58,354 nucleotides of DNA from an uncultured Bacteroidia bacterium (GTDB taxonomy: Bacteria; Bacteroidota; Bacteroidia; Bacteroidales; UBA932). Position 1 is the stretch's first letter, and every line of letters starts with the position of its first letter. The stretch lies in NCBI GenBank assembly GCA_902781705.1, contig CACZKE010000017.1:1-58354 (forward strand). Reading direction: 5' to 3'. Positions 17,864 to 45,663 of this stretch are shown one piece after another. Below the pieces are notes generated by a model, which was not told the DNA's origin, did not search any database, and was given only the letters and a program-made list of their open reading frames with translations. The position numbers and the translations under genes were made by a program.

Positions 17864-20299
17864 TTACTTTTTCTCTTCGTTGCCATAGCCGTAGCCATAG
17901 CCGTAACCATAGCCGTAGCCATAACCATACCCGTAACCATACCCATGGCGGCCAGAGTAACCGTCCACGCCGTTCAGGATAATGGCCATCCGGTTGTACT
18001 TGTTCTCGTTGTACATCTGCTCGACGGCAGGGAGGGCCCGCTTGTCGAACAAGCCGGCGCGCACGATGAAGATGGTAATGTCGGCATGCGGGGCGATGAT
18101 GCTGGTATCGGCGACAAGATCCACCGGGGCGCAGTCCAGGAACACGTAGTCATAGCGCTCCTTCATGGCCGCGATGAGCATGCCCAGACGCTCGGAGACC
18201 AAAAGTTCGGCCGGGTTCGGAGGCAGGGAGCCCACCGGAAGGAGATCCAGGTTATCCTTGATTTTCACGACATGCTCAAACGGATCCTCATACTTGGCGT
18301 TCAAGTAAGAGGCGACACCGGTCGAATTCTTGCCCAGGGACTTCGAAAGGGTGGCCTTCCGGAGGTCCATGTCCAGGATGACGACCTTCTTGTTGCCCTT
18401 CAGGGCCATGGAGGCCGCAAGGTTCATCAAGGTGAACGTCTTACCGGCGTTCGGATTGAAGGAGGTGACCATGATGGCCTGCGTCTCGGTCTCACGGTGG
18501 ATCATGAGGTCCAGATTCGTACGGAGGACACGGAAAGCCTCATTGATGGGGTCGCGCTTGCCGTGCTGGACGATGATCTTGTTGTTCTTGCTGTCAAAGC
18601 GGTTGAGGCGGAAACGTTGCCAGTAATTCTTGGTGAGGCCCATCTGCGGCAGTTCGGCCAGGAAAGGAACGGAAAGCTTTCCGAGGTCTCCCCGACCCTT
18701 GACGGTGGTGTCCATGACCTTCATCACGTAGAACACGGCGAACGGAAGTCCGAAACCCAGGATGAGGGCGACCAGCAGGATCATCATCTTGTTCGGAGCG
18801 ACCGGAGCGTTGGCGCCGGTGGCGCGCTGGATGAGCCGGGTGTTTCCTACGGTCAGCAGGCCCTGGAGTTCATTTTCCTCACGCTTCTGGAGGAGGAAGA
18901 TATACAACTGCTCCTTGACTTTCTGCTGACGCTCGATGGAGAGGAGTTCCAGTTCTTGGCCGGAAGTGGAGGACAGGCGGCCCAGGATGGCGTTTTCCTG
19001 CGCTTCGATCTTGTTCACCTGCAGTTGCAGGGTGGAAATGAGGTTGTCGATGGAGCGGTTCACGGCGAGTTTGTACATCTCCAGACTCTTGTTCAGGTCC
19101 TGGACGTACGGGTTGTTCTCGCTGGACAGGGACAGGGACCGGTCACGCTCCAGGAGAGCCGTGTTATAGTCCCGGATCTGGGATTCGATGTTCGCGCTCG
19201 AGAGGCCGGAATTCGCCGGCATGAGGTCGTTCACATGGGCCGGGTCGTTGATGAACTGCTTGATCATCTTCGCGATCGCGAGTTGGTTGGATGCCTCGAA
19301 TCCCTGGGCCGAATAGGCCGTGGACTGCTGCATGTAGGCGCTTCCCACCTGCTGGACGTTCGTGATGTTGTGACTCTGCTTGTAGTCCTTGAGGTCCTGT
19401 TCGATGCCGCCGAGTTCACGTTCGATGACGTTCAGACGGTCGTTGATGAACAAGGAGGTGTTCCGGACGGACTGGTTCTTGTTCTCCACCCACTCCTCGT
19501 TGTAGATGTCCAGGAGCGTGCCGAGAACGGCCTCCGCCCGGGACGGGAAGACGTCCTTCAGGGAGAGGACCACGACGGAGGACTGCTTGCTGGAGAGGCC
19601 GGCGGAGAGGCGGGCGCAGTAACTCTTGGCCCGGCTGGCGGCATTCACCCAGGAGACCGTGATGTCGTTCTTCCACTTGCCGTAGTTTGCCGTGGGATAG
19701 ATGACAATCCGGCCGATGGGCGTATCCAGGGTATCCTTCACGTGCCCGGTAGCCTTGAAACCCTTGTACTCGCTGGAACCGATGAAGAAATCGCGGATGG
19801 TAAAAGTGCTGTCCTTCCCGTTGGAGATGTTGAAGGAAAAACTCGAGGCGGCGATCTCATCCGTCAGTTGGAGTTCGATCGGGGAGTTCTTGTACATCTC
19901 GCGGACGCGGAGGAACTGGTTGTCGATATAGGAGGTTTCCAGTCCGAGGCGGGAGACGACACGCTGCATCAGGTCGGGAGCGGCGAAGGCTTCGATCTCA
20001 TTGTCCACGTTGGTACCGGAGGAATACCGGCGGGCGGTCCCGGCGAAGGAAGTGAGATCGCGCATCATGGAAGCCTGCGAATCCTCGTCCACGATGACCT
20101 TTTCCGTACGGCTGTAAGTCTTCGGAGTCTTGTACAGATAGAAGCCGGCGATGAAAAGGGCGGCGAGGATGCAGGAAACGTACCACCATTTGTGGTCCCA
20201 CACGAGGGACCAAAGGTCGGCGAGTTGGAGGGACTGTTCCTCTTCCTGCCCCTGCTGGCCGGTCGAGAGCGGAAGGTTGTTCTGAAGATTGTCTGCCAT
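17864..20299 (-). CDS. Wzc-type tyrosine autokinase / polysaccharide co-polymerase
   Basis: An 811-residue protein. A Wzz domain is flanked by membrane helices at about residues 38-56 and 505-527. The cytoplasmic BY-kinase domain has Walker A (TSFNPNAGKTFT, about 612-620), Walker A' (VVILDMDLRK, about 642) and Walker B (YDYVFLDCAPVD, about 720). It ends in an unusual tail with Tyr781 and ten consecutive Gly-Tyr units (tyrosines 787-805 at every second residue) before NEEKK. The tail is the autophosphorylation cluster. The ATG at 20299 lies 4 bases after wza. It controls chain length and couples synthesis to Wza export. Confidence 0.96.
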   Translation of the reverse strand: MADNLQNNLPLSTGQQGQEEEQSLQLADLWSLVWDHKWWYVSCILAALFIAGFYLYKTPKTYSRTEKVIVDEDSQASMMRDLTSFAGTARRYSSGTNVDNEIEAFAAPDLMQRVVSRLGLETSYIDNQFLRVREMYKNSPIELQLTDEIAASSFSFNISNGKDSTFTIRDFFIGSSEYKGFKATGHVKDTLDTPIGRIVIYPTANYGKWKNDITVSWVNAASRAKSYCARLSAGLSSKQSSVVVLSLKDVFPSRAEAVLGTLLDIYNEEWVENKNQSVRNTSLFINDRLNVIERELGGIEQDLKDYKQSHNITNVQQVGSAYMQQSTAYSAQGFEASNQLAIAKMIKQFINDPAHVNDLMPANSGLSSANIESQIRDYNTALLERDRSLSLSSENNPYVQDLNKSLEMYKLAVNRSIDNLISTLQLQVNKIEAQENAILGRLSSTSGQELELLSIERQQKVKEQLYIFLLQKREENELQGLLTVGNTRLIQRATGANAPVAPNKMMILLVALILGFGLPFAVFYVMKVMDTTVKGRGDLGKLSVPFLAELPQMGLTKNYWQRFRLNRFDSKNNKIIVQHGKRDPINEAFRVLRTNLDLMIHRETETQAIMVTSFNPNAGKTFTLMNLAASMALKGNKKVVILDMDLRKATLSKSLGKNSTGVASYLNAKYEDPFEHVVKIKDNLDLLPVGSLPPNPAELLVSERLGMLIAAMKERYDYVFLDCAPVDLVADTSIIAPHADITIFIVRAGLFDKRALPAVEQMYNENKYNRMAIILNGVDGYSGRHGYGYGYGYGYGYGYGYGYGYGNEEKK
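17885..17944 (-). repeat. Hexanucleotide repeat encoding (Gly-Tyr)10
   Basis: Ten tandem GGN-TAY units (6 bases each) near the 3' end of wzc. Glycine codons alternate between GGC, GGT and GGG and tyrosine codons between TAC and TAT, so the array is imperfect at DNA level although perfect at protein level. Copy number could change by recombination or slippage in frame-preserving 6-base steps. Confidence 0.95.
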
Positions 20300-42407: not shown

Positions 42408-43841
42408 ATGAAAAAGATCCTGACTCTCCTTGCCACACTCGCCGGTGCCCTTACCCTGGGCGCCCAGAACCCCGGCGGACTCTCCGAAAACGTCCTTGCC
42501 GAAATCGCCAAGGGGTATGAAGGGACGGCTGCGGACAAAGCCCTCCGCAACGCCCTCAACACCACTCCGATCAACACCCTGGCCCTGAATGCGGACAACA
42601 TCCCCATGGACACCCGCTTCTCCGACATGGTGAAGACCAAGGGCCGCACGAACCAACTCTCCTCCGGCCGCTGCTGGCTGTTCACGGGCCTCAACGTCAT
42701 CCGCGCCAAGATGATCGACAAGTACGACATGGGCCCGGTCATCCTTTCCCAGAACTACAACTTCTTCTGGGACCAGTTGGAGAAGGCCAACCTGTTCCTG
42801 CAGGGCATCATCGACACGAAGGACCTTCCGGACGACGACCGGAAAGTGGACTGGCTCTTCGCCCACCCCATCGGTGACGGCGGACAGTTCACCGGCGTCT
42901 CCAACCTCATCATGAAATACGGCGTGGTTCCTTCCGAGGTGTTCCCGGAGAGCATGAACGCCAACAGCACCTCCCAGATGCGCGCCCAGCTCACCCTGAA
43001 ACTCCGCGAGGACGGCCTGCGTCTCCGCCAGGCCGCGAAGGCCGCCGGTCTGGAAGGGCTCAAGGGCAGGAAACTGGAGAAGGCATCCGCCGACCTCGCC
43101 GCCAAACTCCAGGCCATGAAGGTGGAGCAGCTCAAGGAGATCTACCGCATCCTCGTCCTCTGCCTCGGCGAACCGCCGAAGGAGTTCACCTGGACCCGGA
43201 CCGATTCGAAGGGCAACGTGGTCTCCACGGAGAAATACACCCCGAAGTCCTTCTATGACAAGTACATCGGCGAGGACCTCGAGAACAACTACATCATGGT
43301 CATGAACGACCCTTGCCGCGAGTACTACAAGGTCTATGAGATCGACTATGACCGCCATGTCTATGACGGCGAGAACTGGGTCTACCTGAACCTCCCGATC
43401 GAGGAGATCAAGCAGATGGCCATCGCCTCCATCAAGGACAACACCGCCCTTTACTTCTCCTGCGACGTGAACAAGTTCCTCCTGCGGAAGGAAGGCTTCG
43501 CCGACCTGAACAACTACGACTACGAATCCCTGATGGGCGTCACCTTCGGGATGAACAAGCAGGAGCGCATCTACACCCACGCCAGCGGCTCCACGCACGC
43601 GATGACGCTCATCGCCGTGGACCTGAAGGACGGAAAGCCCGTGAAGTGGATGGTGGAGAACAGTTGGGGCGCCACCTCCGGCTACCAGGGCAACATCATC
43701 ATGACCGACGAGTGGTTCAACGAGTACATGTTCCGTCTCGTGGTCGATAAGAAATACGTCCCGGCCTCCATCATGAAGTACTTCGACCAGAAGCCCATCA
43801 TGCTCCCGGCCTGGGATCCCATGTTTATGCCGGAAGAATAA
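42408..43841 (+). CDS. Secreted C1-family aminopeptidase (bleomycin-hydrolase type)
   Basis: A 477-residue papain-fold peptidase with signal peptide MKKILTLLATLAGALTLGAQ. Catalytic Cys89 is in QLSSGRCWLFTGLNVIR, His about 397 in GSTHAMTLIAVD, and Asn about 417 in MVENSWG, as in PepC/BLMH. Intracellular relatives lack signal peptides, so export to the periplasm is a Bacteroidota trait. It probably trims peptides. It starts 4 bases after the permease stop and is followed by a palindromic element. Confidence 0.93.
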   Translation: MKKILTLLATLAGALTLGAQNPGGLSENVLAEIAKGYEGTAADKALRNALNTTPINTLALNADNIPMDTRFSDMVKTKGRTNQLSSGRCWLFTGLNVIRAKMIDKYDMGPVILSQNYNFFWDQLEKANLFLQGIIDTKDLPDDDRKVDWLFAHPIGDGGQFTGVSNLIMKYGVVPSEVFPESMNANSTSQMRAQLTLKLREDGLRLRQAAKAAGLEGLKGRKLEKASADLAAKLQAMKVEQLKEIYRILVLCLGEPPKEFTWTRTDSKGNVVSTEKYTPKSFYDKYIGEDLENNYIMVMNDPCREYYKVYEIDYDRHVYDGENWVYLNLPIEEIKQMAIASIKDNTALYFSCDVNKFLLRKEGFADLNNYDYESLMGVTFGMNKQERIYTHASGSTHAMTLIAVDLKDGKPVKWMVENSWGATSGYQGNIIMTDEWFNEYMFRLVVDKKYVPASIMKYFDQKPIMLPAWDPMFMPEE

Positions 43842-43854
43842 GCTTTTAGGTTCC

Positions 43855-43980
43855 GGAAAGGTAGTATTCTGAAAACCGTCGACTCCGTCGACCCCTCCCA
43901 AAGCCGGCTTGCGCCGGCTTCGGGCCCCTCCCTCTTATATGGCCGAGGGTGGCCATAGGTTTTCAGAATACTACCTTTCC
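43855..43980. repeat. 126-base element with 23-base terminal inverted repeats
   Basis: Positions 43855-43877 and 43958-43980 are perfect inverted copies (23 bases). Between them are three smaller palindromes: GTCGAC-TCC-GTCGAC, AAGCCGGC-TTGC-GCCGGCTT (43901-43920) and TATGGCC-GAGGGT-GGCCATA. No open frame. It looks like a MITE or complex REP element; a target-site duplication is not evident. It fills nearly the whole gap between the C1 peptidase and the FecCD permease. Confidence 0.9.
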
Positions 43981-44000: not shown

Positions 44001-44945
44001 TTGAGCCGCTCTCTTGCTTTATATTTATGGATCTTACTGATCTGCTGCTGCTTCTTTGACCTGATGGTCGGAGGAGGTGGAGTATCCGTGGCGACGGGAG
44101 CGGTGCTGTGGAAGTTGAGGGTGCCGAGGGTGCTGACGGCGGTGATCGCCGGGGGCGCCCTGGCGGCAAGCGGAGCGCAGATGCAGGCGGTGTTCCGGAA
44201 TCCGCTGGCCGATCCGCACATCATGGGCGTAAGCGGCGGGGCAGGGCTCGGGGCGGCCATCGCGACGATGGCGATCGGAAGTGCATCGGCCTGGTTCACG
44301 GGATTCAGCGTGGCGGTGGCGGCGTTCCTGGGAGCGTTCGTCGCGGCCCTCCTGGTGGTGGCCGTATCGGCCCGGTTCCGGTCCTCGACGACGCTGCTGG
44401 TGTTCGGCGTGATGCTGGGGTTCATCTTCAGCGCGCTGAGTTCGATGCTGCAATACACGGCCGGGGAAGAGAGTCTGAAACTGTTCTACAGTTGGATGGC
44501 GGGCAGTTTTTCCGGCAGCCGGTATCTGGAAATCATCCTCATGGCGGCGGCACTCTCCGTCGGCCTCGGGCTGGCTACGGTCAATGGCAAAGGCCTGGAC
44601 CTCATCCTGTTCGGGGATGAATATGCCACGCTTTCGGGGGCATCGACCCGGCGGATCCTGGTCCTGTCCATGCTGTCCTGCTGCCTGATGACAGGTACGG
44701 TGACGGCCTTCTGCGGTCCCCTCGGCTTCGTGGGGATCGTCGCCCCGCACATTGCCCGGCGGATCACGGGCTCGTCGGCCCACCGGCAGGTCCTCCCCTG
44801 GTCCCTCGCCACCGGCGCCGTCCTCGCCCTCGCCGCCGACATCCTCGCCAACCTCTGGCGGGTCCCCCTCCCCGTGGGCTCCACCCTCGCCCTCATCGGC
44901 ATCCCCCTGATCCTCGTCCTCCTGTTACGGCAAAATCATGCTTGA
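44001..44945 (+). CDS. FecCD-family ABC transporter permease
   Basis: A 314-residue, polytopic BtuC/FecD-like permease. LWKLRVPRVLTAVIAGGALAASGAQMQAVFRNPLADPHIMGVSGGAGLGAAIA is the diagnostic block, followed by FCGPLGFVGIVAPHIARRITG (the ATPase-contacting loop). It moves iron-siderophore, heme or cobalamin. The start appears to be TTG at 44001, only 20 bases after the upstream palindromic element; the next ATG (44064) would remove the first membrane helix. No substrate-binding protein gene is nearby. Confidence 0.9.
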   Translation: MSRSLALYLWILLICCCFFDLMVGGGGVSVATGAVLWKLRVPRVLTAVIAGGALAASGAQMQAVFRNPLADPHIMGVSGGAGLGAAIATMAIGSASAWFTGFSVAVAAFLGAFVAALLVVAVSARFRSSTTLLVFGVMLGFIFSALSSMLQYTAGEESLKLFYSWMAGSFSGSRYLEIILMAAALSVGLGLATVNGKGLDLILFGDEYATLSGASTRRILVLSMLSCCLMTGTVTAFCGPLGFVGIVAPHIARRITGSSAHRQVLPWSLATGAVLALAADILANLWRVPLPVGSTLALIGIPLILVLLLRQNHA

Positions 44946-45663
44946 AATCAACGGCCTTCATATCGGGTACGGCGACCGTATCCTGGTCCGGGACATCTCT
45001 TTCGGGATCGCCCCGGGCGAGATCATCCTCCTCGCCGGGCCGAACGGTTCCGGGAAGACGACGCTGCTGAAGGCTTTGGCCGAAGGGAGCCGTCCCTCCC
45101 CAAAACAGATGGCCGATCAAGTCGGCCATGACGGAGGCCATCGTCATTCCCGGCTCGACCGGGAATCTCCAAGGGCAATTCTCATCCCGACGAACATCCC
45201 CAAGGTGAAGGGCTTCACGGTGGAGGCATTCATCCAGACGGGATGCTATGCGGAGAGCGACTGGCGGGGAAGGATATCGGCCGATGCGGCAGGGCGGCTG
45301 GATGCAGCGCTGGAACTGCTTGGAATCAAGCATCTTAAGGAGCGAGACATCGCGACGCTCAGCGACGGGGAATTCCAAAAGGCATGCCTCGCCGTCGGCC
45401 TCACCCGGAAGGCGGAGGTGCTGCTGCTGGACGAGCCCACGGCGTTCCTGGACGTGGAAAACCGCATCGGCGTCCTGCAGGCGCTGCGGGACATCGCCCG
45501 CAAGACCGGAACGGCCGTCCTCTTCTCCAGCCACGACATCCACGACGCCGTGCAGGTGGCCGACCGCGTCTTCGCCCTCACCCGCGACGGACGGTTCATC
45601 GATTCGGCCGACAAGGCAGCGGCCTTACAGGAAGCGTTTCCGGACATCCATCTGATCTATTGA
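44938..45663 (+). CDS. FecE-type ABC transporter ATPase with palindromic insertion
   Basis: A 241-residue ATPase. Walker A GPNGSGKTTLLK (about 34-45), signature LSDGEFQKACLA (degenerate for LSGGQ), Walker B VLLLDEPTAFLD, and switch His in SSHDIHD. Between Walker A and ILIPTNIPKVKGFTVEAF is a segment (residues 58-77, MADQVGHDGGHRHSRLDRES) encoded entirely by two adjacent hairpin repeats, replacing the usual G-x-I-x-x-x-G strand region. It pairs with the FecCD permease (8-base overlap). Activity may be affected by the insertion, though the frame is intact. Confidence 0.88.
   Translation: MLEINGLHIGYGDRILVRDISFGIAPGEIILLAGPNGSGKTTLLKALAEGSRPSPKQMADQVGHDGGHRHSRLDRESPRAILIPTNIPKVKGFTVEAFIQTGCYAESDWRGRISADAAGRLDAALELLGIKHLKERDIATLSDGEFQKACLAVGLTRKAEVLLLDEPTAFLDVENRIGVLQALRDIARKTGTAVLFSSHDIHDAVQVADRVFALTRDGRFIDSADKAAALQEAFPDIHLIY
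45109..45166. repeat. Two hairpin repeats inside the ABC ATPase gene
   Basis: ATGGCCGA-TCAAG-TCGGCCAT (45109-45129) and ATTCCCGG-CTCGA-CCGGGAAT (45146-45166), each an 8-bp perfect stem with a 5-base loop, 16 bases apart. The second resembles the widespread TCATTCCCGG..CCGGGAATCTCC intergenic repeat. Both are read in frame as protein. Confidence 0.9.

What the first reader, a model, noticed from the sequence alone, without database searches (positions are those of the whole stretch)
45100..45175. Interspersed palindromic repeats read in frame inside an ABC ATPase
Residues 58-77 of the FecE-type ATPase come from two hairpin repeats normally seen between genes. The frame continues and Walker A, signature and Walker B remain. 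In-frame palindromic insertions are known from Rickettsia (RPE) but are rare elsewhere. It falls in the strand region between Walker A and the Q-loop and may have replaced native sequence.
Basis: partly seen in the sequence, partly recalled or inferred. Interest (0 to 1): 0.75.

Follow-up and report, generated by a model that had tools for sequence, protein, structure and literature searches.

The report
Hairpin repeats swapped inside a gene
A short hairpin repeat sits in frame inside an ABC transporter ATPase, in a floppy loop where related species carry a different hairpin element, and similar insertions are found in many conserved genes of these bacteria, which suggests how repeated DNA can keep adding pieces to proteins.

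Summary
Window 45107-45168 is a head-to-head pair of CGTC-type palindromic repeats, read in frame as residues 57-77 of an intact FecE-like ATPase. The family is multicopy here (22 units at 18 places), and 13 of the 18 places lie inside ORFs, among them uvrA, wecB and metH. AlphaFold puts the insert in a disordered loop after the Walker A helix. Of 16 same-genus ATPase rows, the window's and its three closest have long inserts; 12 do not.

F2 has 22 model matches here and occurs in 32 of 37 same-genus genomes and 0 of 24 from other families of the order. The window insert keeps a probable F2 scrap. At 6 of 11 sites compared across four genomes, different palindromes occupy the same loop; all 17 occupied sites in relatives are in frame.

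In-frame palindromes are known (Rickettsia RPE, Wolbachia WPE, intragenic REPs), so this is a new variant of a known kind; I found no report of F2 or of the same-loop exchange in a few searches. Translation of the insert and how the elements move are not shown.

The parts
44938..45663 (+). FecE-like ABC ATPase gene (241 aa) carrying the insert
   Evidence: ORF; PF00005 E 7.3e-23; best NCBIfam matches FecE/heme ATPases, below their cut-offs
45107..45133 (+). CGTC-type palindromic unit 1 (hairpin 1), CGTC head towards the spacer
45134..45141 (+). 8-nt spacer of the head-to-head dimer
45142..45168 (-). CGTC-type palindromic unit 2 (hairpin 2), opposite orientation; followed by CCA at 45169-45171
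45090..45100 (+). probable remnant of an F2 element (CCGTCCCTCCC), matching the F2 insert of the G003 orthologue in sequence and frame
   Evidence: inferred
43855..43980 (-). intergenic copy of the F2 structured element, between a C1 peptidase gene and the FecCD permease gene; strand inferred from wobble pairs
44001..44945 (+). FecCD-type permease gene overlapping the start of the ATPase gene
   Evidence: PF01032 E 3.6e-70

Best explanation
The insert is a head-to-head dimer of a CGTC-tagged REP (a repetitive palindrome) that entered the ATPase gene with the reading frame kept. It adds about 21 residues and is tolerated because it lies in a flexible loop between the Walker A helix and the next strand. 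That loop had probably already been opened by an older palindromic element, F2, which two close relatives keep and of which a scrap remains here. Shown: repeat identity, copy number, frame, loop position in a model, different elements in relatives, purifying selection on the gene. Inferred: that the peptide is made, that it is nearly neutral, and that the repeats are moved by an enzyme in trans or by replication template switching.
For: Multicopy family with matching anatomy. 13 of 18 places in this genome inside ORFs, with Pfam or structure alignments covering both sides of the insert in several (WecB, MetH, HI0933-like, FabA-like, exonuclease, UvrA). Empty or near-empty orthologous sites: metH in G003, uvrA in G005 and G019. 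In the ATPase, 12 of 16 same-genus rows lack the insert. Insert predicted disordered, pLDDT under 50 at residues 53-65, with the rest of the domain mostly above 90. dN/dS 0.26 against G003. CGTCCCTCCC found once in the window, beside the dimer, expectation 0.41 in 58 kb.
Against: No expression data. The F2 remnant is 11 bases only. The clade of the four insert-bearing ATPases is not well supported. C1:103030 has no Pfam match and C2:259293 is an uncertain ORF, so 13 may be slightly high; C34:23624 looks in frame by eye but was not called, so it may also be low. 5 of 18 places are outside called ORFs. No target-site duplication was established.
Confidence: 0.8

Rival explanations
1. Exchange at palindromes: an existing palindrome in a loop attracts or templates the next one (insertion into hairpins, or template switching), so elements replace one another at the same sites.
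For: Different palindromes in the same loop at 6 of 11 sites; F2 in one genome and a REP-type unit in another at 4 of 11 (truA, trmB, ribF, ATPase). hutI of G003 has half of a CGTC unit joined to another hairpin; the window ATPase has an F2 scrap joined to a CGTC dimer. PMC3733652 describes REP dimers inside palindromic sequences in other hosts (passage seen).
Against: Nine of 28 sites in relatives have no element, so sites can also be empty. Permissive loops alone could give the same pattern. The test that F2 arms copy the host flank was inconclusive.
Confidence: 0.3
2. Neutral filter only: palindromes insert anywhere at a high rate, and shared sites are the few loops where an in-frame insert does no harm.
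For: All 17 element-bearing sites in relatives are in frame without a stop. Some other large indels in the same genes are palindromic too: murB of G005, metH of G003, uvrA of G019.
Against: In 12 syntenic genes not chosen for inserts only the ATPase carries a palindromic indel, so the rate is not high everywhere, and finding different families in one loop six times needs many permissive insertions.
Confidence: 0.5
3. The hairpins are selected: they regulate the mRNA or the peptide has a function.
For: F2 shows strong covariation: 96.8% of 1090 cells paired, 25 of 38 pairs with changes on both sides, 0 of 500 shuffles as high.
Against: Elements lie in both orientations relative to genes, in unrelated genes, and are replaced or absent in relatives. 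Template switching could keep arms complementary without selection.
Confidence: 0.08
4. The insert is an assembly artefact or a chance pair of hairpins.
For: The genome is a 43-contig draft.
Against: Similar CGTC units stand at orthologous sites in another genome (wecB and uvrA in G003); shuffles give none.
Confidence: 0.01

Closest known systems
CGTC-tagged REPs (Di Nocera et al. 2013, PMC3733652; opening part, section 15 and passages read)
   Same: CGTC tag at one end, 8-bp stem starting with AT, 5-nt loop, head-to-head heterodimers, CCA tail on one of the two units, some copies inside ORFs
   Different: There most REPs are intergenic; here 13 of 18 places are inside ORFs. I did not compare with that paper's family consensus figures, which are not held.
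Rickettsia palindromic elements (RPE)
   Same: Palindromes inserted in frame in unrelated genes (review PMC10969869, passages; PMC3733652 equates RPE-4 and RPE-6 with CGTC-4 and CGTC-1)
   Different: Host lineage; sequence kinship not tested; in the window genome two unlike families (CGTC and F2) do this, and relatives carry different ones in the same loop
Wolbachia palindromic elements (WPE-like inserts, PMC4224334, passages)
   Same: In-frame palindromic inserts in conserved genes
   Different: Another host; sequence not compared
RU elements of enterobacteria (PMC2759123, outline and abstract)
   Same: 100-170 bp MITE-like repeats, intergenic and inside genes, as F2
   Different: F2 arms differ in sequence from copy to copy while staying nearly complementary; RU sequences were not compared

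Membership tests
CGTC-tagged REP | CGTC tetranucleotide at one end | tested here: met
   both units have CGTCAT at the head
CGTC-tagged REP | Stem of 8-9 bp beginning with AT, loop of 4-5 nt | tested here: met
   8 bp, 5 nt, stems begin AT; feature from PMC3733652 passage
CGTC-tagged REP | Short unpaired tail, mostly CCA | tested here: inconclusive
   CCA follows unit 2; unit 1 has no CCA tail
CGTC-tagged REP | Multicopy and dispersed, often head-to-head dimers | tested here: met
   22 units at 18 places, 4 places with paired units
CGTC-tagged REP | Predominantly extragenic | tested here: not met
   13 of 18 places inside ORFs; this is a reported tendency of REPs, with exceptions in the same paper, not a sequence criterion
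Rickettsia palindromic element (RPE) | In-frame insertion in conserved ORFs | tested here: met
Rickettsia palindromic element (RPE) | Sequence kinship to an RPE family | not tested
   no RPE sequence was fetched
MITE (for F2) | Terminal inverted repeats shared between copies | tested here: not met
   arms are complementary within a copy but differ between copies except for an inner AACC/GGTT-like end
MITE (for F2) | Target-site duplication and a parent transposase | not tested
   no parent element or duplication was searched for systematically
RAYT-mobilised REP | Repeats next to a Y1 transposase gene | tested here: inconclusive
   two Y1_Tnp genes in G000; no exact unit within the fetched stretches around them, though one unit (C16:54805) is about 3 kb from one. 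Y1_Tnp is present in 19 of 21 genomes with the repeat and 8 of 16 without, Fisher p 0.009, not corrected for kinship or completeness
Known Rfam RNA (for F2) | Match above a gathering score | tested here: not met
   0 in the window; sub-threshold matches only, best mir-9223 at 39.7 bits against a cut-off of 53

The most novel reading that the evidence does not exclude
In this genus certain protein loops are standing docking sites at which different palindromic elements replace one another in frame. One of them, F2, is an undescribed structured element whose locus-specific, near-perfect arms are made at insertion, perhaps by hairpin-primed copying of the flank. Palindrome turnover would then be a steady source of new protein segments.
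Probability: 0.3. Interest if true: 0.87.

Novelty: new variant of a known kind. Interest (0 to 1): 0.72.

Why it matters
Protein-coding palindromes are best known from the obligate intracellular Rickettsia and Wolbachia, where relaxed selection can be blamed (recalled reasoning). Here they are frequent in another lineage, in housekeeping enzymes, and several palindrome families use the same loops. That gives many natural replicates for asking whether repeats build protein segments and how palindromes replace one another. F2 adds a strongly covarying structured element for which I found no described family.

Tried and rejected
Chance hairpins: rejected by shuffles and genome copies.

F2 as a known RNA: no Rfam match above a gathering score. 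The model R1 matches to the ATPase copies of G003 and G005 are by construction, since both were among its 29 training sequences; they were first seen by reading the inserts and by blastn with the G003 insert.

F2 arms as inverted copies of the host flank: tested on trmB, yggS, murB and truA. Some alignments look good (yggS of G005, p 0.0055), but 8 of 62 mismatched control comparisons also reach p 0.01, so it is not shown.

Every large indel in these genomes being a palindrome: not so. In 12 syntenic genes of the window and G003, a 19-aa and a 4-aa indel are ordinary and only the ATPase indel is palindromic. F2 inside genes everywhere: not so, 0 of 8 examined in G016, 2 of 6 in G011, 4 of 6 in G034.

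Fold comparison of the model: the VIA library was not on the machine; the other fold libraries were not tried.

Literature searches. Their listings showed neither F2 nor in-frame palindromes exchanged at one site in such a host; PMC3733652 does mention different REPs at about the same site of recB in two Xanthomonas species. The library is partial and the searches few.

Full report
What is there. ORF 44938-45663(+) encodes a 241-aa FecE-like ABC ATPase (PF00005, E 7.3e-23) whose gene overlaps a FecCD permease gene. Codons 57-77 are supplied by two hairpins, 45107-45133 and 45142-45168, each with an 8-bp perfect stem and a 5-nt loop. Read on the proper strands both have the form AGAT-stem-TCNAG-stem-ATGACG. 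They are one repeat family in opposite orientation, with the CGTC heads facing each other across an 8-nt spacer. That fits the head-to-head dimers described for CGTC-tagged REPs (PMC3733652; I read its opening part, section 15 and passages).

Copy number. Hairpin 2 has 13 genome matches with up to 3 mismatches, 0 on the control. Hairpin 1 alone has 27 with up to 3 mismatches, 6 on the control. The generic unit has 50 matches with up to 1 mismatch, control 1; I accept 21 (18 exact, 3 with paired stems) and dropped 29 by eye. With one more this is 22 units at 18 places. With the hairpin-2 pattern, 22 of 61 genomes have a match: 21 of 37 of the genus (the window's included) and 1 of 24 from other families.

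Gene context. A codon-usage gene caller trained on window genes put 13 of the 18 places inside an ORF and 5 outside. One of the 5, C34:23624, reads in frame into a ComF-like protein by eye. Among the 13, WecB (C4) and an exo/endonuclease (C5) have a weak codon score on one side, but a Pfam domain spans the insert in both; C2:259293 is uncertain and C1:103030 has no Pfam match. Identified by Pfam or solved relatives: UvrA, WecB, a MetH-type methyltransferase, an HI0933-like flavoprotein, an amidohydrolase (HutI-like by eye), a FabA-like protein, an exo/endonuclease, two MacB/FtsX permeases, an outer-membrane efflux protein and the window ATPase. In WecB the solved relative 1F6D runs on without the insert.

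The ATPase loop in relatives. Of 16 same-genus rows aligned (best hits with E 1e-44 or better), 12 have a short ordinary loop, down to LAGKDAIMVPT in G016. The window's row and the three with the best matches, G003, G005 and G019, have long inserts. In a tree of 13 rows (three truncated rows left out) these three are nearest to the window (paths 0.50, 0.84, 1.02), but the four are not a well-supported clade. Their inserts are not the CGTC dimer. The G003 insert has 27-nt perfectly complementary arms; G005 has 30-nt arms, 80% complementary; G019 35-nt arms, 74% complementary, family not assigned. The G003 insert has 16 blastn matches in the window genome, 14 in G003 (itself and its own arms included), 13 in G005 and 17 in G019 at E up to 10, the weakest chance-like. 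One is an intergenic element of this window, 43855-43980. The window ATPase keeps CCGTCCCTCCC beside its dimer, as in the G003 element and in the same frame. CGTCCCTCCC occurs nowhere else in the window; expectation 0.41 in 58 kb. The simplest history is an older F2 insert, mostly lost here, plus a CGTC dimer.

The F2 family. Twenty-nine copies from four genomes were aligned. They have an outer stem of about 20-30 bp whose sequence differs between copies, three inner hairpins, and a conserved CCCUC that can pair with GAGGG as a pseudoknot. The window copy folds at -77 kcal/mol, z -12, and its other strand at -83, z -11.6. On a structure that I named, 96.8% of 1090 cells pair, 25 of 38 pairs change on both sides, and the covariation score is 0.60 against 0.18 in shuffles (0 of 500 as high) and 0.07-0.12 in slid controls. 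Orthologous copies are not independent, and template switching could keep arms complementary, so this does not prove selection on an RNA. Wobbles favour one strand (one column pair has 9 GU there and 9 AC on the other). The G005 ATPase copy has a compensated pseudoknot change, a single case. A covariance model finds F2 in 32 of 37 same-genus genomes and 0 of 24 from other families of the order, with 22 matches in the window genome. Of the 15 of those 22 that were listed, 5 are inside called ORFs (RibF, a TrmB-like methyltransferase, a YggS-like protein, an acyltransferase linker, MurB) and a sixth is in TruA by eye. Elsewhere: 0 of 8 examined in G016 (of 35 matches), 2 of 6 in G011 (of 38), 4 of 6 in G034 (of 19).

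Same loop, different element. For ten genes chosen because the window genome has an insert, I sought orthologues in G003, G005 and G019 and printed the junctions. With the ATPase that is eleven sites and 28 orthologous junctions seen; 5 of the 33 possible were not found. Seventeen hold a palindromic element, 2 a remnant and 9 none. In all 17 the frame continues without a stop. (Two stops flagged lie where the joined query runs past a gene's end.) Different palindromes occur among the four genomes at 6 of 11 sites: truA, trmB, hutI, HI0933-like, ribF and the ATPase. At 4 of these (truA, trmB, ribF, ATPase) F2 stands in one genome and a REP-type unit in another, in ribF of G019 beside an F2 copy. 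In truA the window genome and G005 have F2 with different arms, G003 a CGTC dimer, G019 a hairpin without a core. In yggS F2 has opposite orientations in G000 and G003. Sites without an element include metH in G003, yggS in G019 and uvrA in G005 and G019. Assignments were made by eye. Several of the other palindromes recur in fetched loci and look like TGTC variants of the same broad class; TCATACCGAGCGAAG was seen once only. Some other indels in these genes are palindromic too: murB of G005, metH of G003, uvrA of G019. But in 12 syntenic genes not chosen for inserts, only the ATPase has one, and a 19-aa indel is ordinary.

Effect on the protein. An AlphaFold model from the window protein and 29 distant relatives has mean pLDDT 88.6. 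Residues 53-65 are under 50 and the ten-residue blocks from 51 to 80 average 45, 48 and 65, between helix 40-50 and strand 80-83. dN/dS to G003 outside the gaps is 0.26 (dN 0.265, dS 1.01), within the range of the 12 syntenic genes, 0.10-0.48. So the gene is kept and the loop is permissive. Translation of the insert is inferred.

Mechanism. Most likely the repeats spread with little site choice or with some preference for existing palindromes, and selection keeps in-frame cases in loops. The mover is unknown. [quoted passage not shown] The window genome has two Y1_Tnp genes without an exact unit in the stretches around them, though one unit lies about 3 kb from one. Y1_Tnp goes with the repeat across 37 genomes (19 of 21 against 8 of 16, p 0.009, uncorrected).

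Comparison with what is known. In-frame palindromes are known as RPE in Rickettsia (PMC10969869, passages), WPE-like inserts in Wolbachia (PMC4224334, passages), intragenic REPs in several species (PMC3733652), and RU elements in enterobacteria (PMC2759123, outline and abstract). The window case is a CGTC-REP dimer by the features tested and works like an RPE; kinship to RPE sequences was not tested. What looks new, within the searches made, is the lineage with its high intragenic share, the F2 element, and the repeated use of the same loops by different palindromes.

Noticed in passing
window 43855-43980: Intergenic copy of the F2 element: 23-nt perfect arms around three hairpins, RNA fold -77 kcal/mol, z -12, no Rfam match. 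The same arms stand at the syntenic place in G003 with different inner hairpins.
   Followed up: yes
window 45181-45192 (residues 82-85, LIPT): Where ABC ATPases usually have the Q-loop glutamine (motif recalled), this ATPase has threonine, and same-genus rows have T, S or A.
   Followed up: no
window 44938-45663: The ATPase is 67% identical to its G003 orthologue while most of the 11 other syntenic genes are 84-95% identical (two are 61% and 70%).
   Followed up: no
L195 and L313 (yggS-like gene of G000 and G003): F2 sits in the same loop in opposite orientations in the two genomes: core inversion between the arms or separate insertions.
   Followed up: partly
L287 (truA of G019): A bare hairpin without an F2 core stands where G000 and G005 have F2; it may be an excision footprint.
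   Followed up: no
L127 and L128 (G000 C11 and C16): Two Y1_Tnp transposase genes, candidates for moving the repeats, without an exact CGTC unit in the fetched stretches.
   Followed up: partly
window 42408-43841: The C1 peptidase has a 19-aa segment missing in G003 that is not palindromic, an ordinary indel for comparison.
   Followed up: no
window 17878-17937: Short direct repeat of 12-nt period, CGTAGCCATAGC-like.
   Followed up: no
loci L155, L193, L332, L334: Several F2-bearing genes look like RNA-modifying enzymes (TrmB-like, TruA, and by eye a TrmH-type and a MiaB-type protein). This may be chance.
   Followed up: no
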